64,000 nt of DNA from Ferribacterium limneticum (GTDB lineage: Bacteria; Pseudomonadota; Gammaproteobacteria; Burkholderiales; Rhodocyclaceae), in assembly GCF_020510585.1 (NCBI RefSeq), contig NZ_CP075190.1, forward strand, positions 2,726,001 through 2,790,000, written 5' to 3'. Below the pieces are notes generated by a model. That model made no database searches. It worked only from the letters and a program-made list of their open reading frames with translations, and was not told the DNA's origin. Positions within the stretch are counted from its first letter, which is position 1, and every line of letters begins with the position of its first letter. Positions 6,903 to 25,160 of this stretch are shown here, piece after piece. The translations under genes were made by a program, and so were the position numbers.

Positions 6903-8289
6903 CTTGAACCACTTCCCAGAATTAAGCGCACCCCTGTCGTACGATGGACTGCCTGCGCGGAGCCGGCTGTATGCCCTGGCGCCAATCGGTTTGAACACCG
7001 CCCGGACGGAAGGACTGCTTTCCTATCTGGTTCGTCTGGCCGGGGCGCACTCAGTCAATCCGCGCCGGCTTATCCGGACGGAGTTCATCGCCGTGCAACC
7101 GGAGATCGCCCACCTGAACCGCCTATCCTTTTTCCGAAACAACGCCAGAACCGTCAACGGCCTAGGGGCATATGCCCGAAAAATCTGCGACGCAACCAGC
7201 GCGCTTACCGGAGTAGCCGATCTTCGCTATTCGACCCTGCTTCCGCTCCAAAACCTGCTGCCAAGCATCTGCGAGGGGCTACTCTCGCGCCACCTCAAGT
7301 GGTGTCCGAGTTGTTTTGCCGGCATGACAAAATCTGGAGACGAGCCCTATCGCCCCTTGATCTGGTCGTTCCTTCATTATCGCTACTGCAGCGTCCACCG
7401 GCAGCTGCTCATGGAGCGTTGTCCTGATTGCGGGAAGTTTCAGGATTTCATTCCCCAGTATCCCAGCGTTAGCCATTGCAGCCACTGTGGAAGCTGGCTC
7501 GGTCACGATACGAACCAGGATCGACCTTCGGCGGACGATTTGTGGGTATCCGCCGCGATCGAGGACATCGTGCTCAACCTCCGAAGCCTGGAGAAAACTG
7601 CGACACTGGACAACTTGCTTCAGACTGCCGGGATAGCAGCCCAGCGGAATACGTCCGGGAAGCGACGAGCGCTCTGCCGAACAATCGGGATAGAGCGTTC
7701 GGCCATCGGACATTGGCTCGCCGGCCATCGACCATCCATACACCGATGGCTTGCCCTCGCATACGCGTTGGATACCCAGCCAAGTTCCCTATTGCTGCAT
7801 CCATATCAAGACATTGAGCCCCCCCTGGAGGGGTTGCGTAAGGCGCCAAACTTCCTTTGCATTCACCGACCCAAAGTAGCAATGTCGGAGATTGAGCGGA
7901 AACAAATAGAGGATGTGCTCCGTGAAATTGCCGACGCCTCGAACGACCATCACAGCCTGTCTAGCATCGCCAAACGCTTTAATTGGGATGCCGCTGGCCT
8001 GAGGCGCCTCGCACCGGAGGCATGCAATGTGATCCGCGACAAGTACGTTCTCCACCGAAAGCTTGCCGGCGAACGGAACCACGCGAATCACCGTGAAACG
8101 CTGCTTCGGATCTTCGACGAACTTGTCCAAAGCGGCGAGTATCCCGGCGGGCAAAGATTAAAGAGAATGCTCACCCAGAAAAGGATGGTGCTGATTCCGC
8201 GATATCTAAAATCGGCATATTCCGAGGCACTACGGGAATGGATGAGAGGCAAAGCGGAGCCGGCCCCGAAAATTCGGACAGTCGGATAG
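6889..8289 (+). CDS. tniQ: TniQ/TnsD-family target-selection protein
   Basis: 466 residues. The N-terminal TniQ domain begins with EGLLSYLVRLA. Zinc-finger pairs follow: CPSC (about 139-142), CPDC (about 177-180) and CSHC (about 197-200), with HRQLLMERCPDCGK typical of the family. The C-terminal half contains several helix-turn-helix-like stretches (for example IAKRFNWDAAGLRRLAPE), as in TnsD proteins that bind a fixed attachment site. It overlaps tnsC by 14 bp. It is the only TniQ protein here and no Cascade, Cas12k or CRISPR repeat is visible, so sequence-specific targeting by this protein is the likelier mode. The target is not visible. Confidence 0.85.
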   Translation: MKKSDLNHFPELSAPLSYDGLPARSRLYALAPIGLNTARTEGLLSYLVRLAGAHSVNPRRLIRTEFIAVQPEIAHLNRLSFFRNNARTVNGLGAYARKICDATSALTGVADLRYSTLLPLQNLLPSICEGLLSRHLKWCPSCFAGMTKSGDEPYRPLIWSFLHYRYCSVHRQLLMERCPDCGKFQDFIPQYPSVSHCSHCGSWLGHDTNQDRPSADDLWVSAAIEDIVLNLRSLEKTATLDNLLQTAGIAAQRNTSGKRRALCRTIGIERSAIGHWLAGHRPSIHRWLALAYALDTQPSSLLLHPYQDIEPPLEGLRKAPNFLCIHRPKVAMSEIERKQIEDVLREIADASNDHHSLSSIAKRFNWDAAGLRRLAPEACNVIRDKYVLHRKLAGERNHANHRETLLRIFDELVQSGEYPGGQRLKRMLTQKRMVLIPRYLKSAYSEALREWMRGKAEPAPKIRTVG

Positions 8290-11828: not shown

Positions 11829-14800
11829 CTATTCGATTCCCGGACGGCTAAAATTCGCAACCCAGCGCTGAAATTCTTCGGCGGGCATCGGCCTAGCGAT
11901 GAAATAACCTTGCGCAATGTCGCAGCCCAAGTCTGAGAGCTGTTCCCAGTGCTCCCGCGTTTCCACGCCTTCGGCCACCGTCTTGCGGCCCAGGTCGTGT
12001 ACCAGATCGATGGTCGATCGCACGATCATGGCGGAGTCCCGGTTGTCGGACATGGCGGCAACGAATGATTGGTCAATCTTGATGTAGTCGACCGGGAGTT
12101 TTTGCAGGTAACTCAGCGACGAGTAACCTGTGCCGAAGTCATCCACGTAGAGGGGGATGCCTTCGCTGCGCAAGGCGTGCAGAACACGCAACGCGTACTC
12201 TGCATCCTCCATGACGGCGCTCTCGGTAATCTCCACCTCCAGTAAGCCGCGGCTTACGCCTCGCTCGGACTGCCAGTGATGGAACTTGTCGAACAGGTGT
12301 TCGTCGCGGAAATTGCGCGTCGAAAGATTGATGGCGATCGGTAAGGCACAGTTATTTGCCTGCCAGTCTCGCAGTAGGTCGAGCACGGTGACGATCAGCC
12401 ATTCCGTCAGCGGCTTGATCAGCCCCGTCTGTTCCGCCAGGCCGATGAACAGAGCCGGTGGTAGCAGACCGCGGCGCGGGTGCTGCCAGCGTACCAGGGC
12501 CTCCGAGCCGCATACCTGTCCGCTCGCAAAGCTGACTTTAGGTTGCAGATAGACCCTCAGTTGGCCGCCGTCGATGGCCCGGCGAAGCTCGCCAGCCAGG
12601 TTTAATCGCTCGACCTGATCTTGATATTGGGCAGGCTCGAAGAGACACCGGTTCACGCCTCGCGATTTGGCCTGATAGAGAGCCTTGCCCATCCGGCGCA
12701 GCAATTCCTGGGCAGTCGATCCGTGGGCGGGGTACAGTGCGATGCCGGTTTTGGCGGTGACCTCGAGCTCGATATCGGCAACTTGGAACGGGCGGGCCAG
12801 GCCCAGTTCCAAGCTGTCAGCAACGGCCATTGCCGCAGCAGCATCTTGGGCCGGTGCCAGGACGCCAAATTCATCACCACGCAGTCGGGCGACGACGGCG
12901 GAGGCAGGAGCGCTTTCGCGCAAGCGTTGCCCAAAGTCGCACACGATCTGATCGCCGTGGACGGAGCCAAGCACGTCGTTGATCTCGCCGAGACGTTCGA
13001 TGTTGAGCTGCAGCGCAACCAAGGGCACCTTGGGCGATGAACTGTCTTCAACGGCAGCGACGAGGGCTTCCGTGAACTCGACGACGTTGGGAAGACCGGT
13101 GAGTGCGTCGTGGCGCATCATGTGGTGCATCGCCGCCTGGACGCGCTCCTGTTCCGCCCGGGTGCGCAAGGTGGCAAGCCCGAAGGCCAGATCGTCGGCG
13201 GATTCCGTCAGCAGCGCGATCTCGTCATCATCGAACGAATCGGGTTCAGGATCATAGATGGACAAGGCGCCGATGGTTTCCCCGCCGACGCGCAAAGGAC
13301 AGGACAAGCCGGACGTCGCGCCATGGAGTTTGTCCTGCCAGGGGGCATAGTTTGGATCGGATCGCATGTTGCGAACCAGGCGGACTTCCCCGTGGCGGAT
13401 GGCGGCTGACGTCACGCCTTGGCCCAGCGCGCTATCAGTCAGGCTCAGACCAAACAGGCGGAGAGCCGCCATCCCGCCTGGGTAGCCGGATTCAGCCATG
13501 GGACGCAAGGCCGGGTCGGCATTTTCGCCGCGATACCAGACGACGGCCATGCCGTAGCCGCCGGCGGTGACGATGGCGTGACACATGCTTTCCAGCAGGC
13601 TCTGCTCCTCGTTGGCGCGCAACATGGTGCGATTCCCCGCACTCAAGGTACGCAGGGCGCGACTGACGTGCTCCAGTTCCCGAACGCGCTGTTCGAGCTC
13701 GCTGTTGAGCGTCTGGATACGTTCTTCGAAGTGCTTGCGTTCGGTGATATCCGTACCCAGTACGTAGTAACCCGCAATTGTTCCGTCGGCGTTGTACTTG
13801 GGCATGTAGCGAATGGTTTGCCAGACCCCGGGAAAGGGTTGCCAGTCGTAGCCTTGGGCCTGGCCTGCCAGCACCTTGCTGATCAGCGGGCAGGCCACGG
13901 CATAGCGCTCTTCACCAAGAATTTCCTCGACCGTGCAGCCTGTGATGTCCTCGCAACCGGGCGCGAAGCGCGCACGGTACTGGTCGTTGACGTAGACATA
14001 GCGCCGCTCTGCATTGACAAAGGCAATCAGGGCCGGTACGGCACTGATCACGCTATGCAGGTGGTCTTCACTTTCCTGCAATCGCGCGGTGCGCTCCCGT
14101 ACATCAGCTTCCAGCAGGGCGTTTTGTTCGTGAATAATGCGTTCGGCCTTGCGTTCGGTGGAGACGTCGCGGAAGACAAGCACCACGCCGCGCAACCTCC
14201 CCTGGGTGTCCCGGATCGGGGCGGCGCTGTCGGCGATGGGATGCTCGGTGCCGTCACGCGCGATCAGCGCGGTGTGGTTGGCAAGGCCCTGGGTTTCCCC
14301 TGTGGACAGTACCTTGGCGACCGGTACTTCGGCAGGCTCGCGGGTCCGTTCGCTGATAATGCGGAACACCTCGTCCACCGGGCGCCCCTGCGCCAGGGAG
14401 ATCGGCCAACCGGAGAGTTGCTCGGCGACCGGATTCATGCGTGTAATGCACCCCGCGGTGTCGGTTGCCATCACCGCATCACCGATCGAGTGCAGGGTGG
14501 TGGACAGGTTTTCCTCGCTGTCGGCCAGTGCGCGTTGGCTGGCTTCGGTCTCGCGCAGTTGTTGGCGGATCAAGGCATAGGTCGCACTGAGCAGGGCGGC
14601 CAGCAACGCCGCCACCAAGGTACCGGCAACCACCAGCATCCGGCGCGCCTGCGCATACCCTGCTTCGCGCTCGGTCAGCAGTCGCCGCTCCTCCGCATCC
14701 ATCTCGCTGAGCAACTCGTAGGTGCGGGTTCGCGTGGCACGCAGCGGTACGGTGGCCACGTAGGCATTGGCGGCATCCTGACCCTGGGTCTTGCGCAGGA

Positions 14801-15185
14801 TTTCGATCTGCCGCGAGATGGCCAGGCGCTGATTCATGATCTCACGCAACTCTACCCAGCGTTGTTGTTGGCGGGCGTTGTCGACCGTCAACTGCCGGAT
14901 ATGCTCCAGTGTGCTTTCTCGTTCCGCAATGGCTGCGTTGCGTTCGACGAGATTAGCCGGATCGCCGGTCAATCGGAAGTTTTGGGTCGTCAGCTCGATC
15001 TGCAGCGTGTAGCCGCGAGTACGAGCTAGATTGTTGAGTACCGCATGGGTGTGCTCGACCGTCTGCGCCGCGCTAGCGGCGTCGTCCGCCACTTTCCAAG
15101 TCATCGTTGCCAAGGCGATCACCACCAGCATTGCTGCAATGAATGCGACGAGTACCTTGGTTTCGAAACGACGCTGCAGTGTCAT
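11829..15185 (-). CDS. Membrane sensor with CHASE3, PAS, GAF, degenerate GGDEF and EAL domains
   Basis: 1118 residues from the ATG at 15185 (GGAAAG upstream; a TTG at 15206 is in frame). The order is: TM helix (about 8-28), a periplasmic helical CHASE3-like region, a second TM (about 183-205), PAS (about 220-340), PAS (about 370-485), GAF (about 520-665), GGDEF and EAL. The cyclase signature is RGDEF instead of GGDEF. The EAL domain keeps EALVRW, the metal and catalytic residues in EITES, DDFGTGYS, KIDQSFV and VAEGVET. It therefore most likely hydrolyses c-di-GMP, with GGDEF as a GTP-sensing or structural module. No operon partner is present. Confidence 0.88.
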   Translation of the reverse strand: MTLQRRFETKVLVAFIAAMLVVIALATMTWKVADDAASAAQTVEHTHAVLNNLARTRGYTLQIELTTQNFRLTGDPANLVERNAAIAERESTLEHIRQLTVDNARQQQRWVELREIMNQRLAISRQIEILRKTQGQDAANAYVATVPLRATRTRTYELLSEMDAEERRLLTEREAGYAQARRMLVVAGTLVAALLAALLSATYALIRQQLRETEASQRALADSEENLSTTLHSIGDAVMATDTAGCITRMNPVAEQLSGWPISLAQGRPVDEVFRIISERTREPAEVPVAKVLSTGETQGLANHTALIARDGTEHPIADSAAPIRDTQGRLRGVVLVFRDVSTERKAERIIHEQNALLEADVRERTARLQESEDHLHSVISAVPALIAFVNAERRYVYVNDQYRARFAPGCEDITGCTVEEILGEERYAVACPLISKVLAGQAQGYDWQPFPGVWQTIRYMPKYNADGTIAGYYVLGTDITERKHFEERIQTLNSELEQRVRELEHVSRALRTLSAGNRTMLRANEEQSLLESMCHAIVTAGGYGMAVVWYRGENADPALRPMAESGYPGGMAALRLFGLSLTDSALGQGVTSAAIRHGEVRLVRNMRSDPNYAPWQDKLHGATSGLSCPLRVGGETIGALSIYDPEPDSFDDDEIALLTESADDLAFGLATLRTRAEQERVQAAMHHMMRHDALTGLPNVVEFTEALVAAVEDSSSPKVPLVALQLNIERLGEINDVLGSVHGDQIVCDFGQRLRESAPASAVVARLRGDEFGVLAPAQDAAAAMAVADSLELGLARPFQVADIELEVTAKTGIALYPAHGSTAQELLRRMGKALYQAKSRGVNRCLFEPAQYQDQVERLNLAGELRRAIDGGQLRVYLQPKVSFASGQVCGSEALVRWQHPRRGLLPPALFIGLAEQTGLIKPLTEWLIVTVLDLLRDWQANNCALPIAINLSTRNFRDEHLFDKFHHWQSERGVSRGLLEVEITESAVMEDAEYALRVLHALRSEGIPLYVDDFGTGYSSLSYLQKLPVDYIKIDQSFVAAMSDNRDSAMIVRSTIDLVHDLGRKTVAEGVETREHWEQLSDLGCDIAQGYFIARPMPAEEFQRWVANFSRPGIE

Positions 15186-15857
15186 GAGACTTTCCGTTTT
15201 GCGCAATGGGACAGCCGGATCGCAAAAATAGCTTCAATCCGTGTACTGGACCGACCAGGAGATTTGCTTCGTGAGGCAACAACGGTTATCTGTTCGGTCA
15301 AGGATGCTTGACACCGGACCCCTGAGCGCGGGCTGGCAGTTGCCGGAAGCAACCCGGACTGCACCCGGCGGCCCGCCAACCTATCCGGTACGAAGTTGAA
15401 TGATCGGATGCACCCACATTTTCTCTCCTCATCAAATAAGCTGCACGGTGGCGCATGGAGGCCTGGTTTCAAGGAAGAAAGGGGGAAGTACATGCCATTG
15501 CCGTTACAGTAGGTCTGACTAAGAGTGTATTCCAAATCGTAAGTTGCAATGACAAGTGGAAAGTTGTGGAGCCGCACCTTTGATCTGGCAGTGTTGCCTT
15601 TATCCACAAATTTGGGCACCGGTCACGGCCGTCCTGGGGCAACTCTGCACAACGAAAGTTGAGGCGGCTAGGCACAACTTTTGGCCGAGAAGTTGCAGGT
15701 CAACCTGATTAGGGTAAATGAGCAAGGTTTTGGCATTCCAGTCGCTCGGACTGAGACGGCCATCTCTCTATTGGTGGCCCAGGTTTCTCGGCCTATGATT
15801 GATGGAACGTGCCGGCCCACATTGGCTGGCGGCCGGAATTAGTCTAAGGATAACGAC
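15186..15857. other. Intergenic, nothing recognised
   Basis: About 670 bp between two divergent c-di-GMP genes. I see no convincing coding sequence, RNA or repeat. It must hold both promoters. The upstream part near 15700-15857 is AT-richer and ends with AAGGATAACGAC before the next start. Confidence 0.4.
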
Positions 15858-18491
15858 ATGGACGATGCGCTGTTCGAAGGCCTTCTGGAAGCGGCACCTG
15901 ATGGAATCATCATCGTCGATGCCGATGGGCGCATCATGATCGCGAACGCGCAAATCGAAACACTGTTCGGCTATACCCGGCAAGAACTGATCGGACAACT
16001 GGTCGACCTCCTGGTTCCCGAGGCGCTGCGCGCCGGACACCCGACGCATCGCCAAGACTTCCACCGCCAGCCCCGCACGCGCCGGATGGGGATTACTCGC
16101 GGCCTCCACGCACGGCGCAAGGACGGTTCGGAGTTTGCCGCCGACATCAGTCTCTCCGCTCACGCAACCCCGCAGGGCGTCCTCGTGACCGCAGTCGTTC
16201 GCGACATCTCCGACATCATCCAGACCGAGAAGGAATTGCGGCGCATCAATCGGATGCTGCGGGTTCTCTCGCTGTGCAACGAGACCTTGGTGCACGCGCA
16301 CGACGAGACCGAGCTGTTGGAAGCTATCTGTCGACATCTCGTGGACGTGGGCGGTTATCGCCTTGCCTGGGTGGGCTTCGCGCTTCACGACGACAAGCGG
16401 ACGGTGCAACCGGTCGCGCAGGCCGGTACCGGCGAGGGCTTGGTCGATCAAACTCGTTTTACCTGGGGCGACGATGCGTTGGGACACGGGCCGGTCGGTG
16501 ACGCTATCCGCCAGGGCCAGCCGTCGGTGGCGCATCATTTGGCCGAGCACCCCGATTTCCAAACCTGCCGGGCAACGTTGGCGACCCATGGCATCTCGAC
16601 GATCCTGGCCCTGCCGCTGCACAACAAGGGGATTAGCTTTGGCGTGCTCAACCTCTATGCGGCAGACCCCGATGCCTTCGACGCGGAAGAAATAAAACTC
16701 CTCCAGGAGCTCTCGAGCGATCTGGGATACGGCATCCGCAGCCTGCGCGAGACCGAAGCGCGCGAGCGCTTCGAGCGCGAACTGGAATTCCGGGACAACT
16801 TCGACACCCTGACCGGACTGCCCAATGCCAAGCTGTGCCTTGAGCGGCTGCGTCAGGCGATCGTCGACGCCGGACGCAGTGGTCGGATGGCTGCGGTCCT
16901 GGTCGTGAACCTGGATCGCTTCAAGCTCGTCAAGGAAAGCCTCGGTCACCTCGCCAGCCGCGAGCTCCTCAAATGCGTCGGGCAGCAGTTGTCTATCTGC
17001 CTGCGCGATGGCGATACGGTCGCCCGGCTGTCCGGCGACGAATTCACCGTGGTGATGTGCGAAGTGGGCAAGATCGAGGATGTCGAGCAGGTCGCCGGCC
17101 GCTTGCTCGACGCGGTGGCGCAGCCGCTGCTGCTCAGCGGGCACACCCTGCGCATGACCGCCAGCGTCGGCATCAGCCTCTATCCGACGGACGCCGCGAC
17201 CGCGGAAACGCTGCTCGGCCACGCCGAAGCCGCCAGCTACAGTACCCAAGCGCTCGACAGCAACACCTATCGCTTCTATGACCCGGAAATGAACGCCCAC
17301 TTATCCGCCCGGCTTGATATGGAAAACGATCTGCGGCGCGCTATCGAGCACGGCGAACTGGTGCTGCATTTCCAGCCCAAGGTCAATCTGGCGCGCGGCC
17401 AGATGGAAGGGGCGGAGGCGTTGGTGCGCTGGCAACATCCCAGCAAGGGCTTGGTGCCACCGGTCGAATTCATCCCGCTGGCGGAAGAAAGCGGGCTTAT
17501 CCTTCCCTTGGGGGAGTGGGTGATCGACCAAACCTGCCGTCAGATTCGCATCTGGCTCGATGCCGGGCTGGCCGTGCCGGTCATCGCAGTCAATCTGTCG
17601 CCGCGGCAGTTCCGCCAGGAGCATCTGGCGCGGACCATCGTCCGCGCGCTCAATGCGTACGAACTGGAAGCCAAGTACCTTGAGTTCGAGATCACCGAGA
17701 GCGCCGCCATGCATGATCTGGAGGCGACGCTTGCGATCCTGCGCGAGCTCAAGGGGCTTGGCCTCAAGCTGTCGCTCGACGACTTCGGCACCGGTTACTC
17801 GAGTCTGGCGTATCTAAAGCGCTTCCCGATCGATCACCTCAAGATCGATCGTGCCTTCGTGCGCGACCTGATCAGCGATCCCGACGATGCGGCGATCTGC
17901 CTCGCGATCATCAACCTGGCCCACAGCCTCAAGCTGATCGTCATCGCCGAAGGCGTCGAAAGCGAGGCCCAAATGAACTATCTGCGGCGCCACGGCTGTG
18001 ACGATATCCAAGGCTATTTTTTCAGCCGCCCGGTACCGGCGGTGGAATTTGCGCAGCTCCTGGGCGAGTGGATGCCCTTGCCCGCCGACGTGCCAGAAGA
18101 CGAGCGGCCGACGCTCCTGATCGTGGACGACGAGGTCGGCATGATCAGTGCCCTGCAGCGTCTGCTGCGCCGCGAGGGCTATCGGATTCTGACCGCCGGC
18201 AGCGCGCAGAAGGGGTTCGAGTTGCTGGCCACCCACGACGTGCATGTAATCCTCTCCGACCAACGGATGCCCCAGATGAGCGGGACCGAATTCCTCTCCC
18301 GGGTCCGGGAACTCTATCCGGACACCATCCGCATCGTACTTTCCGGCTACACCGACCTCGACACCGTCACCGGGGCAGTTAACCGCGGCGCAATCTACAA
18401 GTTCTTGACCAAACCGTGGGACGACGACCAATTGCGCGACCAACTGCGCGAGGCGTTTCGGCACCAGGGCGGGGCGAGCCGTCGGAACTGA
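15858..18491 (+). CDS. PAS-GAF-GGDEF-EAL protein with a C-terminal receiver domain
   Basis: 877 residues, cytoplasmic (no TM). PAS occupies about 1-120, GAF about 140-290, GGDEF about 310-470, EAL about 480-735 and a receiver domain about 750-870. The cyclase signature is SGDEF, so synthesis is possible. The EAL domain retains EALVRW, EITES, DDFGTGYS, KIDRAF and AEGVES, so hydrolysis is possible too. The receiver has DDE near its start, phospho-acceptor Asp in ILSDQRMP and Lys in LTKPW. It most resembles receivers of HD-GYP regulators. A receiver at the C-terminus is the reverse of the usual order, suggesting phosphorylation-controlled EAL output. It stands alone; the cognate kinase is unknown. 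Confidence 0.9.
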   Translation: MDDALFEGLLEAAPDGIIIVDADGRIMIANAQIETLFGYTRQELIGQLVDLLVPEALRAGHPTHRQDFHRQPRTRRMGITRGLHARRKDGSEFAADISLSAHATPQGVLVTAVVRDISDIIQTEKELRRINRMLRVLSLCNETLVHAHDETELLEAICRHLVDVGGYRLAWVGFALHDDKRTVQPVAQAGTGEGLVDQTRFTWGDDALGHGPVGDAIRQGQPSVAHHLAEHPDFQTCRATLATHGISTILALPLHNKGISFGVLNLYAADPDAFDAEEIKLLQELSSDLGYGIRSLRETEARERFERELEFRDNFDTLTGLPNAKLCLERLRQAIVDAGRSGRMAAVLVVNLDRFKLVKESLGHLASRELLKCVGQQLSICLRDGDTVARLSGDEFTVVMCEVGKIEDVEQVAGRLLDAVAQPLLLSGHTLRMTASVGISLYPTDAATAETLLGHAEAASYSTQALDSNTYRFYDPEMNAHLSARLDMENDLRRAIEHGELVLHFQPKVNLARGQMEGAEALVRWQHPSKGLVPPVEFIPLAEESGLILPLGEWVIDQTCRQIRIWLDAGLAVPVIAVNLSPRQFRQEHLARTIVRALNAYELEAKYLEFEITESAAMHDLEATLAILRELKGLGLKLSLDDFGTGYSSLAYLKRFPIDHLKIDRAFVRDLISDPDDAAICLAIINLAHSLKLIVIAEGVESEAQMNYLRRHGCDDIQGYFFSRPVPAVEFAQLLGEWMPLPADVPEDERPTLLIVDDEVGMISALQRLLRREGYRILTAGSAQKGFELLATHDVHVILSDQRMPQMSGTEFLSRVRELYPDTIRIVLSGYTDLDTVTGAVNRGAIYKFLTKPWDDDQLRDQLREAFRHQGGASRRN

Positions 18492-19260: not shown

Positions 19261-19276
19261 GTTTGACAAAATATAC

Positions 19277-19308
19277 GTCGTGTTTTACGATTAAACTGAT
19301 TTCACGAC
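19277..19308. promoter_or_regulatory. Candidate operator upstream of the WYL regulator
   Basis: GTCGTG (19277-19282) and CACGAC (19303-19308) form a dyad about 27-58 bp before the regulator's ATG. Its left part, GTTTTACGAT, repeats the start of the AT-rich element at 18735. Position and symmetry suit autoregulation by the WYL protein; this is inference. Confidence 0.4.
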
Positions 19309-19334
19309 CAATCATATTTTAAGCCGAATAACCA

Positions 19335-20243
19335 ATGAGCGAATTGACGCTTGCCGATGACGATGTAGGGGGCAATTCCGATGATCGGCAGCCCCGCCAC
19401 GGCCGCTGGGGGCTAGATCGGCGTCTGGAGTTCATAGAATTTCGCCTGCTCTGGGAAGGCAAAATCAATCGCGGCGAATTGGCAGACTTCTTTGGCGTGT
19501 CCATCCAGCAAGCTTCTCTGGATTTCGCCAAGTACATGGTTCTGGCCGAGCGCAACATGGAATACGACCGGAGCGAGAAGGTGTATCGCGCCACCCAAGA
19601 ATTCACCCCCCGATTCCTCGCACCAAATACACAGACGTTCCTTAATCAGCTGGCCAACTTAACCACCGGCACTCTCTCTCCGGCCATGGGCTTCATCGGT
19701 TCGCGGCCACCATGTGATGTGGTCGCGCTGCCTACACGCCACGTCCGCACCGACGTGCTGCTGGCAGTTCTTTGGGCCATTCGGGATGGTGCTGAGATCG
19801 AGGTGACCTACCAGTCCATGCGCCGGCCATCGGCAACCAGACGCTGGATCACTCCTCATTCACTCGCTTTTGACGGCGCTAGATGGCATGCGCGCGCCTG
19901 GTGTCACGATGCCAATGCGTTTCGTGACTTCGTGCTCACTCGAATTCAGGAAATTCATGCACGTCGGAAGAGCGATGTCAACTCATTGGCGGATTCTGAC
20001 TGGCATACGCAAGTGGTGGTAATCATAGAGCCGAAGCCCGACCTTACCCTCGCTCAGCGGGATTCGGTCATCACCGATTACGGAATGCAGAACGGTAAAC
20101 TCTTCCGGACACTCCGCCGAGCCCTTGTTCAATATTTTGTTCGACATCTGCGGATCGACGGCCCCGAACCGACCGGGCAACCAATCATCTGGGCGAATCG
20201 CGACGAACTGAAGGACTTAGTGGACTTACGCAGGTTGTATTAG
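19335..20243 (+). CDS. WYL-domain transcriptional regulator, CapW/BrxR type
   Basis: 302 residues. A winged helix-turn-helix lies at about 25-95 (RRLEFIEFRLLWEG, then RGELADFFGVSIQQASLDF). The WYL domain at about 135-210 includes HSLAFDGARWHARAWC followed by FRDFVLTRI, and a C-terminal WCX-like extension follows. This architecture matches CapW and BrxR, dimeric repressors that sit at the 5' end of CBASS, BREX and other phage-defence loci and are thought to derepress on infection. It lies 53 bp before the ubiquitin-like operon in the same direction, so control of that operon is likely. The upstream dyad 19277-19308 is a plausible operator. Confidence 0.85.
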   Translation: MSELTLADDDVGGNSDDRQPRHGRWGLDRRLEFIEFRLLWEGKINRGELADFFGVSIQQASLDFAKYMVLAERNMEYDRSEKVYRATQEFTPRFLAPNTQTFLNQLANLTTGTLSPAMGFIGSRPPCDVVALPTRHVRTDVLLAVLWAIRDGAEIEVTYQSMRRPSATRRWITPHSLAFDGARWHARAWCHDANAFRDFVLTRIQEIHARRKSDVNSLADSDWHTQVVVIIEPKPDLTLAQRDSVITDYGMQNGKLFRTLRRALVQYFVRHLRIDGPEPTGQPIIWANRDELKDLVDLRRLY

Positions 20244-20296
20244 GCAATAAGTGGCTCTCTTGATTAACATCGTTGCATATTACGGAGGTAACTGAA

Positions 20297-20572
20297 ATGA
20301 CCGACGGCAAAGAAGGTAAAGAAGGTAAAGAAGGTAAAGACAAGGTGAAACTCAATCATTTCTTCGTCGATGCCAAGAAGTATGAAACTGCTCAAACGGC
20401 GCTTACGGGAGCGGAAATCAAGGCTATCGCAGGAGTCGCGGCGAACTACCAGCTCTTCCTCGAAGAACAAGGAGATGATCCGGACAAAGCCATCGGCGAT
20501 GGCGAGGCGGTGAACCTTGCCGAGCGGGTGAAGCACTTCTTCGCTGTTCCGCCAGCGACCTTTGGTGCGTAA
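20297..20572 (+). CDS. Ubiquitin-like modifier (multiubiquitin family), single-domain form
   Basis: 91 residues from the ATG at 20297, with GGAGG eight bases upstream. The N-terminus is a low-complexity GKE repeat encoded by a near-perfect 9-bp DNA repeat. The remainder is one beta-grasp domain (KLNHFFVDAKKYETAQ, helix, then ERVKHFFAVPPATFGA). The strand-helix pattern and PPATFG ending are those of the bacterial multiubiquitin family. The chain ends Phe-Gly-Ala, so a JAB peptidase removing Ala would expose a C-terminal Gly for E1 activation. It is adjacent to the E2 gene with no gap. It is presumably the protein conjugated by this system; targets are unknown. Confidence 0.8.
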   Translation: MTDGKEGKEGKEGKDKVKLNHFFVDAKKYETAQTALTGAEIKAIAGVAANYQLFLEEQGDDPDKAIGDGEAVNLAERVKHFFAVPPATFGA

Positions 20573-20971
20573 ATGATTGACGAACAGTTTGCCCAAATCC
20601 AGGGCTACCTCCGGGACGAAAAAGGGCTCGATGCAAGCATCGAGCGCCTGAGCACCGGCGGCCATCTTGTCACCATCAAGGATGTACCCGTCAGAGGTGG
20701 TTGGGATCGTGAGAAGGTCGGCGTCATGTTCGTCGCACCACCCGGTTACCCGGCCGCAAAACCGGACTGTTTTTGGGTGACACCAAACCTACGGCTTGCC
20801 AACGGCGCACCTCCGCAAAGTGCCAACGACGGCACTCCCATACCGGGTGATCCGTCGCCCGGCCGACCGCTCACATGGTTCTCCTGGCATCTGCAAAGTT
20901 GGGACCCCAACCTCGACAAGCTGATGACGTTCTATAGCGCCATAATGCAGCGCCTAATCCCAGCGCGATGA
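20573..20971 (+). CDS. E2-like conjugation protein (prokaryotic E2 family E)
   Basis: 132 residues with the E2 fold pattern: VPVRGGWDREKVGVMFVAPP, then YPAAKPDCFWVTPNLRLANG, then PLTWFSWHLQSWDPNLDKL. It matches the Prok-E2_E group that sits beside multiubiquitin and JAB-E1 genes. It would accept the modifier from E1 and pass it to a target. The only Cys is residue 66, in PDCFWV. That lies before the position of the classical E2 catalytic Cys, so the thioester site is unclear. The start follows the modifier's stop directly, and its stop overlaps the E1 start by 4 bp. Confidence 0.8.
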   Translation: MIDEQFAQIQGYLRDEKGLDASIERLSTGGHLVTIKDVPVRGGWDREKVGVMFVAPPGYPAAKPDCFWVTPNLRLANGAPPQSANDGTPIPGDPSPGRPLTWFSWHLQSWDPNLDKLMTFYSAIMQRLIPAR

Positions 20972-22305
20972 TTCAGATCGGCATCTCCAGGGCTCACGCA
21001 GAGGAAGTCGCCCGCGCTGTTCTTGGGGGCGACGTCGAGCGTTGCGCAGTGCTTTATGCTTCTCGGGCATTACCAGAGAGCGGTGGCTTGCGCCTCGTTG
21101 TCAAGGAAGTCGAGGTCCCCGAGCCGGATAGTTACTCGCAGCAGAGCAAATTTGCGAGCGAACTCAATCCGGCGTTGGTTGCAAAGATTAGCAAGAGAGC
21201 AAAGTTGCGCGGTGAGTCGATCGTGTTCGTCCACTCGCACCCTGGGGACGAACGACCGCAATTTTCACGAGTCGACAACATGGGCGAGCGCCGCTTGGCG
21301 GAGTTTTTGGCGACGAGGACGCCTGATATTCCGCATGCTTCGATAGTAATTAGCGCGGGAGGATGGCGTGCGCGCAAGCTCGGCACATCCATTCCCGTGA
21401 AGGTCGTTTCGATTGGGGAGCAACGCCGAGTACTCTTCGATCCCGACGATTGCGGCGGTTCGATTACCACTGCCCTATTCGACCGCCAGGTAAGGGCGTT
21501 TGGCGAGGCCGGACAGCGTGTCATTAGCTCACTTACGGTTGCAATCGTCGGCTTGGGTGGCACAGGATCGGTGGCCGCCGAACAGCTTGCTCACTTGGGA
21601 GTGCGCCGATTCATCCTCATCGATCCCGACGCTATAGAGCAAACCAACCTGAATCGCGTCGTAGGCGCGTGCCATGCCGACATTGATCGTCCGAAAGTTG
21701 ATGTCGCAGCGGAGCATATTTGCTCGATAGCCCCGGACATCGAGATAACGCGAGTTCAAGGCGATGTGACCCGCACTCATACCGCGAGAGCGTTACTGCC
21801 GGCCGACTTTATTTTTTCTTGTACAGATTCTCATGGCAGCCGTGCTGTCATTCAGCAGGTCGCCTATCAGTACCTAATCCCATGCATTGATGTCGGTTCG
21901 GTGCTCACTGCTACCGCGGGCCAGGTAACGGGTATACACGGACGTGTCCAGGCACTGGCTCCGGGACTGCCGTGTTTCACCTGTAGCGGGCTCATTGACG
22001 CGGAACAGGTTCGGCGAGACATGATGAATGACGACGAGCGGCGTCTCGATCCGTATATTCAGGGAGGGCGCGAACCCGCGCCGGCAGTCATCTCCATCAA
22101 TGCCACCATTACCTCCTTGGCTGTAACCATGTTTATGGCGATCACAGTCGGTGTTCCCAGTGACGGGCGCTATATCCTCTACAACGCGAAGGGGCCATCG
22201 CTTAGATCGGTAAGGGCCACTCAGAATCCAGCATGCTACATCTGTTCGCCTCGCGGGGTGCTTGCCCGAGGTGATTCTCAGTCGTTGTTCACCAGGGACG
22301 AATAA
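20968..22305 (+). CDS. JAB peptidase-E1 (ThiF) fusion
   Basis: 445 residues. Residues 1 to about 150 are a JAB/MPN metalloprotease with VHSHPGDERPQFSRVD (H-x-H...S-x2-D, near residues 88-101). This zinc-dependent fold trims or removes ubiquitin-like proteins. Residues about 170-440 are an E1-type adenylyltransferase: GLGGTGSVAAEQLAHLG (about 194-210), then LIDPDAIEQTNLNR, and zinc-type cysteines at CFTC (about 336) and CYIC (about 422). E1 adenylates the modifier C-terminus using ATP. Fusion of the two activities is typical of the multiubiquitin/E2-E operons. It overlaps the E2 gene by 4 bp and is 1 bp from the kinase gene. Confidence 0.9.
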   Translation: MIQIGISRAHAEEVARAVLGGDVERCAVLYASRALPESGGLRLVVKEVEVPEPDSYSQQSKFASELNPALVAKISKRAKLRGESIVFVHSHPGDERPQFSRVDNMGERRLAEFLATRTPDIPHASIVISAGGWRARKLGTSIPVKVVSIGEQRRVLFDPDDCGGSITTALFDRQVRAFGEAGQRVISSLTVAIVGLGGTGSVAAEQLAHLGVRRFILIDPDAIEQTNLNRVVGACHADIDRPKVDVAAEHICSIAPDIEITRVQGDVTRTHTARALLPADFIFSCTDSHGSRAVIQQVAYQYLIPCIDVGSVLTATAGQVTGIHGRVQALAPGLPCFTCSGLIDAEQVRRDMMNDDERRLDPYIQGGREPAPAVISINATITSLAVTMFMAITVGVPSDGRYILYNAKGPSLRSVRATQNPACYICSPRGVLARGDSQSLFTRDE

Positions 22306-22306
22306 C

Positions 22307-23992
22307 GTGGCTATTCGAGAATTCTCACCCGAAGGTGTACATCGCCTGAAAGTTGCGTTCTTCAACGAATTGCCGGAAGAGTCAATCGAGTCCCGATTCA
22401 AGGAGCGGGGCTTTGTATGCATAAAGTGCACCGAATCCGAACTCACCGATCCAAGCTTTGTCTCATTTCTTGATGCCGTCGTATTCTCCCAACGTCCGGA
22501 AAAGCGGACCGGCTTGAACAAGGTACTGGAGACGGTGCCGCTGCTCCTGAACAATGACGTCCGCGTCTACATCCGCATGGCATCGGACCCTGAAAGGACT
22601 TCTGGTGCTCGCGACAAGGTTGTCGATACCTTGCTGCGCTTGCAGCTTCCGATGGCAAATATCACGCCCGAAGAATGGAGTCGGATCCCGGACCAAAGAC
22701 GCGAGCGTGAGAAGGCATTCCTCGCTCCTTATGTCTACCTCGTCGATGCATCCGCCGACTGGAGCAAGATTACTCACGTCATTTGCGACCGACCGGCTGG
22801 AGGCACGCCCAATACGGCAATAAAGATCAATGGATCGGACTACCTAGCGAACGGCGACCTGGCGATTCACCGAGAGCGCCTCCTGCTCATCCAACGAGCC
22901 TTCCATGATTGCGACGAATTGCACGTCGAACCTATGATCGACGGGTTGTCAGGGGCACCCGTATTTAAGGTGTACGCGAAGCTACAACACGCACAAGGAG
23001 CCCTGCCGAGCAACTGGCCGTACCTGTACTTCGTCAAGTTGGGCCCGCGCAAGACGATAGCGGATGAGTATGACAAATATGTTGGAAGGGCGATCCATCA
23101 CGTACCGTTCCACCTCGGCCCAAGGCTGCGTCTGGGACGATGCAATCTCGGGACGTCGCAGGGTATTTTGGTTGGGGATTTTGTCGAAGGTGCGGAGTCC
23201 ATCCGCGATTGTGCGTCCGCTGGACGTGCAGGACATGCGATTGCAAACTTGTTCGATAAGACGCTAGGGCCTTGGCGGAAGCAGGCACACCACACGAAAC
23301 GCTCCCTCAAAGAGTACCTTGGGAAGAAATGGCTGACGAAAGACGGACAGGAGATTGCGCTTCCGCCTAAACGTGCGGAAATAGTTAGGCAACTTGGCGG
23401 CATTCCTGACGTCGCGCCCCTACGGAAGGTATTTGAGCAGATCGGCGACCACGCCGGAGCCATCTGCGGCCCCGCTCACGGAGACTTGCATGCGGCGAAT
23501 GTTCTCGTCCGCAATGGCGACGCCATCATTATCGACTTCGAGAAGATGGAGGATGAGTTTCCGATGCTCTACGACCCAGCGTCCCTGGAATCCGGGTTGG
23601 TCATGGATGGATTCGTGCGTGATAAACGAGCCAAAAACGCACCGGAAGAGTTATTGGAATTGATCCGTCCGCTGTATACAGGAAACGCGCTAATCGCACT
23701 CACCGTCCCGTATCACGCGGCGAATCCTGCCTCCTGGCTTTTTGATTGCGCCGCCCAGATTCGGACTCTGTCTCGGCATGCGGAGAGTACCGCTGGACAA
23801 TATGCCCTTGTGCTTGCACTGTGCCTCATTCGAAAGGGCTGCAATCCGGATCCTTTCGAACCGATTAACGAAAACCTTCGTGCAATATCCTTTGTCCTAG
23901 GGCAAAGCATTCTGCTGGACCTCGCCTCCATGCTCACTGTGCAAGCGCGTACTGTTTGCCGAAATGAGACTTGTAGCGAGCGCATTGCCTAA
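22307..23992 (+). CDS. APH-like protein kinase of the ubiquitin-like operon
   Basis: 561 residues from a GTG at 22307, 1 bp after the E1 stop and preceded by AGGGACG; an upstream ATG inside the E1 gene gives 15 extra residues and is less likely. The N-terminal about 150 residues show a strand-helix alternation like a receiver or flavodoxin fold. From about 230 is a phosphotransferase fold: YFVKLG supplies the ATP Lys (about 243), GPAHGDLHAANVLV is the catalytic loop (about 390) and IIIDFEKMEDEF holds the metal Asp (about 408). It resembles kinase-like domains seen in predicted conflict systems (TCAD9-like) more than drug kinases. Role and substrate are unknown; location suggests regulation of conjugation or an effector. 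Confidence 0.7.
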   Translation: MAIREFSPEGVHRLKVAFFNELPEESIESRFKERGFVCIKCTESELTDPSFVSFLDAVVFSQRPEKRTGLNKVLETVPLLLNNDVRVYIRMASDPERTSGARDKVVDTLLRLQLPMANITPEEWSRIPDQRREREKAFLAPYVYLVDASADWSKITHVICDRPAGGTPNTAIKINGSDYLANGDLAIHRERLLLIQRAFHDCDELHVEPMIDGLSGAPVFKVYAKLQHAQGALPSNWPYLYFVKLGPRKTIADEYDKYVGRAIHHVPFHLGPRLRLGRCNLGTSQGILVGDFVEGAESIRDCASAGRAGHAIANLFDKTLGPWRKQAHHTKRSLKEYLGKKWLTKDGQEIALPPKRAEIVRQLGGIPDVAPLRKVFEQIGDHAGAICGPAHGDLHAANVLVRNGDAIIIDFEKMEDEFPMLYDPASLESGLVMDGFVRDKRAKNAPEELLELIRPLYTGNALIALTVPYHAANPASWLFDCAAQIRTLSRHAESTAGQYALVLALCLIRKGCNPDPFEPINENLRAISFVLGQSILLDLASMLTVQARTVCRNETCSERIA

Positions 23993-24000
23993 TCGACTCA

Positions 24001-24519
24001 ATGCCGAAGCTCAGCCTTAAAGCGACTATTTCGTCCCGAAGTTCCGCTGAAGCGTTCCTGACGGCACCGGGCGACGCAGTCATAGTTGATCGAGACGGGC
24101 TTCGCTGGCTCTTTCTGAGTTGCCCATGTGGTTGCGGAGCCGCCATACCCGTTAACCTTGATCCGCGAGCCGGTCCGGCATGGCGCTTGTATCAAGGAAT
24201 GGGCGGGATAAGTCTTTATCCGTCCGTAGTGCGGCGCACGGATTGTAGGAGCCACTTCATCGTCCATCGAGGCTCCATCCTGATGTTAGGAACCCGCTAC
24301 GATAGCCACGATTTTTACGTAGACAGGAACCTGGCCAGCTTGGAGGAGGAGACGTTCACTCATCTTTCGTGGCTTCACACCAAGAGTACCGAAGAAATAG
24401 CCGATAGCATCGCTGGCAGCATCCCATGGGACATATTGCAATGCTGTCGACGGCTTGTTCGTAGGGGCCTCGCTGTGGAAGGACGAGGTCGTAACAGAGG
24501 ACGATTCAAAAGAGCTTGA
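24001..24519 (+). CDS. DUF6527 putative metal-binding protein, operon copy
   Basis: 172 residues. The diagnostic region is SCPCGCGAAIPVNLD, then SLYPSVVRRTDCRSHFIV: C-x-C-x-C followed by C-x2-H, which I take as a zinc site. The C-terminal part has IPWDILQCCRRLVRRG, a helical tail shared with the neighbour gene. DUF6527 proteins regularly accompany multiubiquitin, E2-E and JAB-E1 genes; their biochemical role is not established as far as I know. It lies 8 bp after the kinase gene, completing a five-gene operon. A ligase or specificity factor is a possible but unproven role. Confidence 0.75.
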   Translation: MPKLSLKATISSRSSAEAFLTAPGDAVIVDRDGLRWLFLSCPCGCGAAIPVNLDPRAGPAWRLYQGMGGISLYPSVVRRTDCRSHFIVHRGSILMLGTRYDSHDFYVDRNLASLEEETFTHLSWLHTKSTEEIADSIAGSIPWDILQCCRRLVRRGLAVEGRGRNRGRFKRA

Positions 24520-24572
24520 AAGTGTGAGCGTGGAAGTTTGTTTCCTGGCGCACCGGTTTGAGCGATTGACCG

Positions 24573-25160
24573 CTACGCCAAAATGTCTATCTTTCCTGCT
24601 TGGGGTGGCGTTCCGCCCGCTAGGTCATATCTGCAGAAAAACCCCTGCTTTCCCTCAATGGCGCGGCGTTGACGAACAAGTGCATTGCACGCCCAGAGGA
24701 CTTCCCATGGAATCATACGAAGGTCTTCTGCGATGGTTTCAAAGCTCGTAAAGCCACTGCTGCTTAACCTAGCTAGTACCGACGATAAAAAGCTCTCATC
24801 GAAGACTGGCTCCGCAGTTGTGCGGGTATCGGGCCAAAGAATCTTGTCCCTCCAGACAATGAAGTGCGCGCGACACCCGGTGTCCCTCCAGACGGATGGG
24901 AAAATCGTAAGGTCTTGTCCGGTATCGTACGTCCGCCACGCCTTCCCCACACGCCGATCGAGATTGATCGGAAGAATTTCTCCGCAACCGTCAGGGCATG
25001 CCATTACGATGGAGCGCGGGACCCCACGTACCACGAGAACGTAGTCCCCTGGGGAATGAAGCTTCGGAATAGCTTCCGAAAACCTCGAAGTGCTTCCTCT
25101 TGAATTAATTCGATGAGCTAGTCCCAATGCAATTGCTCCAAATTGTCGGCTTGGCGACAT
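24573..25160 (-). CDS. Second, divergent DUF6527 protein facing the operon
   Basis: 195 residues from the ATG at 25160. The core aligns with the operon copy: ACPDGCGEILPINLD, then FPSVWRDTGCRAHFIVW, then IPWEVLWACNALVRQRR. C-x3-C and C-x2-H are kept, but the middle Cys of the operon copy's C-x-C-x-C is Asp here. It has about 20 extra N-terminal residues. It converges on the operon copy with 53 bp between stops and has its own promoter. It is a paralogue rather than a duplicate: identity is only moderate. It could be a second specificity factor or belong to a lost second operon. Confidence 0.7.
   Translation of the reverse strand: MSPSRQFGAIALGLAHRINSRGSTSRFSEAIPKLHSPGDYVLVVRGVPRSIVMACPDGCGEILPINLDRRVGKAWRTYDTGQDLTIFPSVWRDTGCRAHFIVWRDKILWPDTRTTAEPVFDESFLSSVLARLSSSGFTSFETIAEDLRMIPWEVLWACNALVRQRRAIEGKQGFFCRYDLAGGTPPQAGKIDILA

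What the first reader, a model, noticed from the sequence alone, without database searches (positions are those of the whole stretch)
19335..25160. Ubiquitin-like conjugation locus with an added APH-like kinase and two DUF6527 proteins
Seen: tightly packed modifier, E2-E, JAB-E1, 561-aa kinase and DUF6527 genes (gaps or overlaps of -4 to 8 bp), headed by a WYL regulator. Known: modifier/E2-E/JAB-E1/DUF6527 sets and CapW/BrxR regulators are associated with phage defence. I do not know a described version with this large APH-like kinase inside the operon. The kinase could switch conjugation on or be a toxic effector. This is my best candidate for an undescribed system.
Basis: partly seen in the sequence, partly recalled or inferred. 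Interest (0 to 1): 0.9.

Follow-up and report, generated by a model that had tools for sequence, protein, structure and literature searches.

The report
Bacterial ubiquitin-like operon with built-in kinase
This is a set of bacterial genes resembling the ubiquitin protein-tagging machinery, in a recurrent version that carries an extra kinase gene, which suggests that protein tagging and phosphorylation may work together in a bacterial stress or defence response.

Summary
Window 19335-25160 holds a CapW-like WYL regulator, a ubiquitin-like modifier, an E2 (Prok-E2_E), a JAB-E1 fusion, a 561-aa APH/TCAD9-type kinase and two DUF6527 genes, the last on the opposite strand. The core is a Bub (bacterial ubiquitination-like) operon: nearest solved proteins are Citrobacter BubCD and BubB.

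The kinase is not a chance neighbour. I found its core in 11 distinct loci (Pseudomonadota, Deinococcus), all inside the same Ubl-E2-JAB/E1-DUF6527 operon, 10 with the kinase between E1 and DUF6527. Only two other finds, both fragments. The E1s of these operons form one clade (support 100/99 and 94/98). Kinase catalytic residues are intact in 11 of 11. Sixteen other Bub-like loci opened showed no kinase.

I read it as a kinase-bearing subtype of Bub operon, probably damage-induced, whose kinase most likely phosphorylates a pathway component or tagged target. That last step is inference. Nothing I could read describes this kinase, but the two main Bub papers were not held. Anatomy and linkage were right; phage defence is undemonstrated even for ordinary Bub operons.

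The parts
19262..19320 (+). Promoter-like site and candidate CapW operator: TTGACA-17-TACGAT overlapping GTCGTGTTTTACGATTAA (19277-19294)
   Evidence: Promoter-like site 19263-19291, 10 of 12 matches (the scan found 4 sites against a mean of 3.8 in shuffles). The 18-mer is identical upstream of WYL in L002 at 6984-7001, one site in each, 0.01 expected in the window at up to 3 mismatches. In L002 it lies in a 21-bp inverted repeat; the same scan reported no such repeat at this place in the window. Function inferred.
19335..20243 (+). CapW/BrxR-like WYL regulator
   Evidence: PF13280; PDB 7tb5 'WYL domain-containing protein' 5e-65, S. maltophilia CapW 7tb6 1e-62, CapW 9c5g 3e-51, BrxR 7t8k 2e-39
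20297..20572 (+). Ubiquitin-like modifier (BubA-like, one beta-grasp, C-terminus ...PPATFGA)
   Evidence: PF14452; aligned with 7 relatives; FG followed by 0-4 residues at the C-terminus in 11 of 11 kinase-operon modifiers
20573..20971 (+). E2-like conjugating protein (BubB-like), WFSWH motif with Ser104 at the proposed nucleophile position
   Evidence: PF14462; profile against Citrobacter BubB 1.3e-8; alignment
20968..22305 (+). JAB peptidase fused to E1 (BubCD-like)
   Evidence: PF14464 and PF00899; Citrobacter BubCD 9ea4 1.7e-35; H89, H91, S100, D103 (JAMM positions, motif recalled) invariant in 8 of 8
22307..23992 (+). APH/TCAD9-type kinase with a divergent N-terminal region of about 165 residues
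   Evidence: PF19974 and PF01636; K244, E254, H391, D393, N398, D410 conserved in 11 of 11
24001..24519 (+). DUF6527 protein a (CPCGCG type)
   Evidence: PF20137 1.6e-17; alignment
24573..25160 (-). DUF6527 protein b (CPDGCG type), inverted relative to L002 and L045
   Evidence: PF20137 2.5e-13; 49% and 52% identical to the b copies of L002 and L004 (= L045), 38% to its neighbour a

Best explanation
This is a Bub-type bacterial ubiquitin-like conjugation operon of a distinct kinase-bearing subtype. Proposed working: (1) the CapW-like regulator represses its own promoter and is released by DNA damage (inferred from its family); (2) the JAB domain trims the modifier tail to ...FG and E1 activates it (inferred from motifs and the BubCD match); (3) the E2 carries it on Ser104 rather than on a cysteine, and hands it to a target (inferred from alignment); (4) the kinase is a standing working part of this subtype, most likely phosphorylating a pathway component or the tagged target so as to switch or complete the response (inference, the weakest step); (5) the DUF6527 proteins are the Cys/His-rich accessory shared with most ordinary Bub operons (role unknown). 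Shown here: gene content, conservation, linkage and conserved active-site residues. No biochemistry was tested.
For: Bub identity. Regulator. Kinase linkage: 11 distinct kinase-core loci, all in Ubl-E2-E1-DUF6527 operons. One clade of E1s: 10 kinase rows plus one IS-flanked remnant against 9 kinase-less rows, 100/99, and against 14, 94/98. The kinase tree keeps the same well-supported groups. Catalytic residues kept in 11 of 11. Marks in the partners: E2 'DCFW' in 11 of 11 against 0 of 11 kinase-less; modifier FG end in 11 of 11 against 0 of 5. The kinase is less conserved than E1, E2 and modifier in every pair compared, and its N-terminal region is the least conserved part in 6 of 8 pairs.
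Against: No substrate and no structure: the two-sequence AlphaFold model of the kinase failed (pLDDT 35). Bub-like operons without a kinase are more numerous (8 of 12 in the genome samples), so it is not needed for conjugation as such. One clade member without it exists (Roseomonas L014), though no modifier or E2 was found there either and insertion sequences flank it. In a first, wider tree with three long or partial rows, the Deinococcus and G522 kinase rows lay in an unresolved fork. L047 departs at G213, S215, V219 and R525, L046 at S215 and E428. A small-molecule substrate or a toxic role is not excluded.
Confidence: 0.55

Rival explanations
1. The kinase is a toxic effector: it inactivates a host or phage factor (protein, RNA or metabolite) and the conjugation genes restrain or trigger it, giving abortive infection.
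For: A CapW-like regulator; Pfam places the kinase in TCAD9, linked to vWA-MoxR-VMAP conflict systems; Kaur et al. 2020 report a few active APH-type kinases among effectors of such systems (PMC7159879, passages seen); little conservation of the N-terminal region; CBASS genes close by on one plasmid.
Against: In the 13 kinase-less loci with a DUF6527 gene it follows E1 directly, so no other gene fills that slot. Genes further downstream were not surveyed, so effectors elsewhere are not excluded. No toxicity data.
Confidence: 0.28
2. The kinase is an accessory small-molecule phosphotransferase that hitch-hikes in the operon and acts independently of conjugation.
For: APH superfamily enzymes often act on small molecules (recalled); the only PDB sequence matches are weak, three of four of them maltokinases.
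Against: No full-length copy was found outside such operons; E1 and kinase trees agree in their supported groups; marks specific to the subtype in E2 and modifier.
Confidence: 0.12
3. The kinase fold has another catalytic job in the pathway, such as AMPylation or glutamylation, or serves as a target-recognising E3-like subunit.
For: Kinase-fold enzymes with other reactions are known (recalled, not searched); none of the window's seven proteins matched a RING-type E3.
Against: The canonical phosphotransfer residues are kept, which favours ordinary kinase chemistry.
Confidence: 0.05

Closest known systems
Bub (bacterial ubiquitination-like) operons (Ye et al. 2026 NSMB and Gong et al. 2025 Structure: titles only, seen in a reference list; CapK/CapS paper PMC13373217: passages seen)
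   Same: BubB-type E2, BubCD-type JAB-E1 fusion, ubiquitin-like modifier; CapW or CapH+CapP-like regulators; DUF6527 (its place in Bub is recalled)
   Different: Adds a 482-564 aa APH/TCAD9-type kinase; E2 has DCFW and WFSWH; modifier ends in FG plus 0-4 residues; DUF6527 is doubled in three of 11 loci
Iyer, Burroughs and Aravind 2006 operon type 6e (PMC1779556: the section on these gene clusters read whole, other passages seen; the table row was not seen)
   Same: Ubl repeats, E2/RWD-like protein, JAB-E1 fusion, Cys/His metal-binding protein; sporadic distribution
   Different: No kinase in that section's 6e description; they judged the E2 likely inactive for lack of Cys
TCAD9 (PF19974), linked to vWA-MoxR-VMAP ternary systems (PMC10910872, one figure-legend passage seen)
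   Same: Over the gathering score in the window kinase and in 5 of 6 relatives scanned
   Different: Best-matching stretch is the C-terminal part of the profile; none of the seven window proteins is vWA, MoxR or VMAP
CapW/BrxR WYL repressors
   Same: Near full-length match to solved CapW and BrxR
   Different: DNA binding and damage response not tested here
CapK (GHKL kinase upstream of Bub, CBASS and other operons, PMC13373217, passages seen)
   Same: A kinase gene next to Bub operons
   Different: CapK is a GHKL-type kinase upstream that controls transcription; this one is APH-type and sits inside the operon

Membership tests
Bub operon | Beta-grasp modifier of the Multi_ubiq type | tested here: met
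   PF14452 38.5 bits against cut-off 24.5
Bub operon | E2 related to BubB | tested here: met
   A2 profile against Citrobacter BubB 1.3e-8. The Ser-x-His column is shared by 20 of 22 E2s aligned; the archaeal L068 has Cys there and L066 has Ser-x-Lys. That this Ser is catalytic is inferred
Bub operon | JAB-E1 fusion related to BubCD | tested here: met
   Citrobacter BubCD 1.7e-35 over residues 21-391
Bub operon | DUF6527 gene downstream | tested here: met
   PF20137 in two genes. That DUF6527 belongs to Bub is from memory and from 13 of 16 kinase-less loci here
Bub operon | Covalent conjugation of the modifier to targets | not testable with these tools
   Needs biochemistry
Bub operon | Gene content as published (whether a kinase is ever included) | tested here: inconclusive
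   Kinase at 22307-23992; the published gene lists could not be read
CapW/BrxR | WYL regulator of CapW length and sequence, upstream of the operon | tested here: met
   S. maltophilia CapW 7tb6 1e-62 over residues 23-294; position
CapW/BrxR | Damage- or ssDNA-responsive repression | not testable with these tools
   Only a conserved candidate operator was seen
APH-type kinase | Lys, alpha-C Glu, HGDxxxxN and ID residues (motif recalled) | tested here: met
   Invariant in 11 of 11; PF01636 just over its cut-off in the window protein
TCAD9 in vWA-MoxR-VMAP ternary systems | vWA, MoxR and VMAP partners | tested here: not met
   None among the seven locus proteins scanned by Pfam
Type II CBASS | CD-NTase in the operon | tested here: not met
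   No such match; CBASS genes seen only as neighbours in L007
Anti-phage defence system | Protection against phage | not testable with these tools
   PADLOC matched only the WYL and E1 proteins, not modifier, E2, kinase or DUF6527

The most novel reading that the evidence does not exclude
A bacterial ubiquitin-like pathway that is obligatorily coupled to phosphorylation: the built-in kinase phosphorylates the modifier, the E2/E1 or the tagged protein, and the DUF6527 proteins read or reverse the double mark, a bacterial parallel to kinase-ubiquitin coupling in eukaryotes that arose once in the Bub lineage.
Probability: 0.25. Interest if true: 0.85.

Novelty: new variant of a known kind. Interest (0 to 1): 0.62.

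Why it matters
Bub pathways are recently defined and, by the one paper I could read in part, not yet shown to protect against phage; what they do is open. A clade in which one extra enzyme has become a standing member of the operon gives a direct handle: kinase-dead mutants ask what the pathway does and to what. If the kinase acts on the modifier or its targets, this would be a bacterial coupling of ubiquitin-like tagging and phosphorylation.

Tried and rejected

Phage-borne copies: no kinase match among 50,697 phage records and none in viral contigs by narrow peptide patterns (E1 profile). The pattern searches are weak tests.

Close kin: in 60 relatives (35 of the same genus, 24 of the same order, own genome) only the own genome has the kinase.

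Empty-site comparison in the genus: flanking DNA is too diverged and too rich in GGDEF-EAL paralogues to find the insertion point; dropped.

Generic APH hits: in the phylum sample 105 of 108 matching genomes gave only weak local matches (best 3e-10) and were not counted as relatives. Two weak class matches (6e-5, 2e-4) were treated the same way. Four Prok-E2_E matches under the cut-off (three, one) were not opened.

Rows dropped: L002's second E1, Mycolicibacterium L066 and Salinigranum L068 were in the first tree and left out of the later ones for partial length or long branches. In that first tree the Deinococcus and G522 kinase rows lay in an unresolved fork with kinase-less rows. Rhizobium C104 (L012) E1 is split over two frames and was never put in the E1 trees; its kinase end is also out of frame. 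For L007 E1 I translated from inside the open frame, upstream of the annotated start. With five more kinase-less rows the clade support went from 100/99 to 94/98.

Against a clean motif: FSWH also occurs in one kinase-less locus, L081, placed just outside the clade; its other motif there is DMFW, not DCFW.

Literature: seven searches were answered. None of their listings shows a paper on a kinase inside such an operon, but the library lacks the two defining Bub papers.
Full report
What is there. Gaps from modifier to the first DUF6527 are 0, -4, 1 and 8 bp. The kinase start is a GTG at 22307 (561 aa). The second DUF6527 gene is on the minus strand and convergent. In L002 and L045, which also have two copies, both run with the operon. 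Each copy is closer to its counterpart in those genomes (47-52% identity) than to its neighbour (38%). So the window shows a local inversion or replacement of the last gene rather than a fresh duplication (inference).

What family it belongs to. By sequence against solved structures, the JAB-E1 protein is closest to Citrobacter BubCD (1.7e-35), the E2 profile to Citrobacter BubB (1.3e-8), and the modifier profile to multi-ubiquitin domain proteins and a BilA Ubl. The regulator is closest to an unnamed WYL protein (7tb5, 5e-65), then S. maltophilia CapW (1e-62) and BrxR (2e-39). This is a Bub-type operon and fits the '6e' type of Iyer et al. 2006, whose description (section read whole; table row not seen) lists Ubl, E2/RWD-like, JAB-E1 and a Cys/His metal-binding protein, and no kinase. 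[quoted passage not shown]

The kinase. Pfam gives TCAD9 (74.5 bits, cut-off 40, best stretch in profile positions 293-372 of 429) and APH just over its cut-off. TCAD9 passes its cut-off in 5 of 6 relatives scanned. NCBIfam gave only sub-cut-off matches and PADLOC none. The catalytic Lys, Glu, HGD...N and ID residues are invariant in 11 of 11 homologues. The N-terminal region matched no Pfam family in three of four proteins tested and a weak sub-cut-off one in the fourth. Its identity to the window is 12-56%, against 27-68% for the core.

Linkage. Homologues were sought as follows. (a) GTDB contigs by peptide patterns: one relative, Sideroxydans L002, with the same seven genes. (b) Plasmids by tblastn: 13 of 72,556 records. 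Twelve of the 13 also hold an E1 match next to the kinase by coordinates; seven of the 12 are near-identical Bradyrhizobium plasmids, of which I opened one. The 13th (Bradyrhizobium 187, L013) is a kinase and DUF6527 remnant. (c) 60 relatives: own genome only. (d) Class sample of 369: own genome and G363, plus two weak generic matches. (e) Phylum sample of 398 with a profile: own, G786 and G522; the other 105 matching genomes are weak generic APH matches. (f) 198 genomes of the family of G522: the same two and one lone kinase fragment, G889. (g) Phages and viral contigs: none. In all, 11 distinct loci carry the kinase core (window, L002, L007-L012, L045-L047), all inside Ubl-E2-E1-DUF6527 sets. 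Order is E1-kinase-DUF6527 in 10 of 11 and E1-DUF6527-kinase in G786. One of the 11, L012, has E1 and the kinase end out of frame.

How common. Prok-E2_E over its cut-off was found in 6 of 398 genomes (phylum) and 7 of 369 (class). The union is 12 loci: 4 carry the kinase (own, G363, G522, G786) and 8 do not in the 9.7-16 kb opened around each. With 8 plasmid loci picked from lower down the E1 list, 16 kinase-less loci were opened; 13 of them have a DUF6527 gene, directly after E1. Their further downstream genes were not surveyed.

One clade. A maximum-likelihood tree of E1 puts 10 kinase rows and the Roseomonas row on one side of a branch: 100/99 against 9 kinase-less rows and 94/98 against 14. 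In the first tree, with three long or partial rows still in, Deinococcus and G522 lay in an unresolved fork. In each tree the fewest label changes is two, which fits one gain and one loss. The loss is Roseomonas L014, where E1 is followed directly by DUF6527, no modifier or E2 was found in the stretch, and insertion sequences flank both sides, so it looks like a damaged remnant. The kinase tree shows the same supported groups. Of the 40 plasmid records listed of 204 with an E1 match, 13 have E1 at 40% identity or more and 12 of these have the kinase; the other 27 listed lie at 34.5% or less and none is in the kinase list; 164 were not listed.

Marks on the partners. E2 proteins of kinase operons have DCFW and WFSWH in 11 of 11. 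Of 11 kinase-less ones, 9 have WSRH and none DCFW; the archaeal one has Cys where the others have Ser. This agrees with Ser104 taking the place of the E2 cysteine. That Bub enzymes work through serine esters is my recollection, not read here. Modifiers of kinase operons end in FG plus 0-4 residues in 11 of 11; none of five kinase-less separate modifiers does. One further kinase-less locus, L081, has FSWH (with DMFW) and branches just outside the clade.

Regulation. Upstream of WYL an 18-base stretch overlapping the -10-like hexamer is identical in the window and L002, one site in each. In L002 it lies in a 21-bp inverted repeat; no matching repeat was reported at that place in the window. In other loci the regulator differs: XRE plus ImmA (L010, L047), XRE (L011), a divergent Xre-RES pair (L009), a small XRE-like ORF (L045). 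WYL and XRE plus ImmA match the damage-responsive CapW and CapH+CapP described for Bub operons; the others do not obviously.

How it probably works. DNA damage lifts CapW; JAB trims the modifier; E1 and a serine E2 attach it to targets; the kinase acts in the same response. I favour phosphorylation of a pathway member or tagged target over a free toxic effector, because in kinase-less Bub operons no other gene fills the kinase's slot and because E2 and modifier carry marks specific to the kinase clade. The margin is modest and no step after gene content was tested.

Verdict. A real, recurrent, kinase-bearing variant of Bub operons, most simply of one origin; function of the kinase open; anti-phage role unproven.

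Noticed in passing
L002:12961-20168: The Sideroxydans locus has a second Bub-like set (modifier, partial E1 match, DUF6527) just downstream, preceded by a protein that reads like an ImmA plus UvrD/RecB-type helicase (my reading of the sequence). Helicase genes also lie beside Bub-like sets in L012, L067 (annotated) and L081 (my reading), a possible recurrent partner.
   Followed up: partly
L007:11910-13518: CBASS genes (cGAMP-activated phospholipase and DncV-like enzyme) lie about 4 kb from the kinase-bearing operon on a Bradyrhizobium plasmid.
   Followed up: no
window 24573-25160: DUF6527b is inverted in the window but co-directional in L002 and L045; a 30-nt, 70% inverted repeat at 24454-24483 and 24651-24680 lies near one end and may be chance or the two homologous genes themselves.
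   Followed up: partly
[not shown]
   Followed up: no
window 11829-18491: Two very large proteins precede the locus; the second is PAS-GAF-GGDEF-EAL by Pfam, the first looks alike, and the genus is full of DNA matches to the second.
   Followed up: no
L009:2367-3457: A RES-Xre toxin-antitoxin-like pair sits divergently upstream of the Mesorhizobium kinase operon in the usual regulator position.
   Followed up: no
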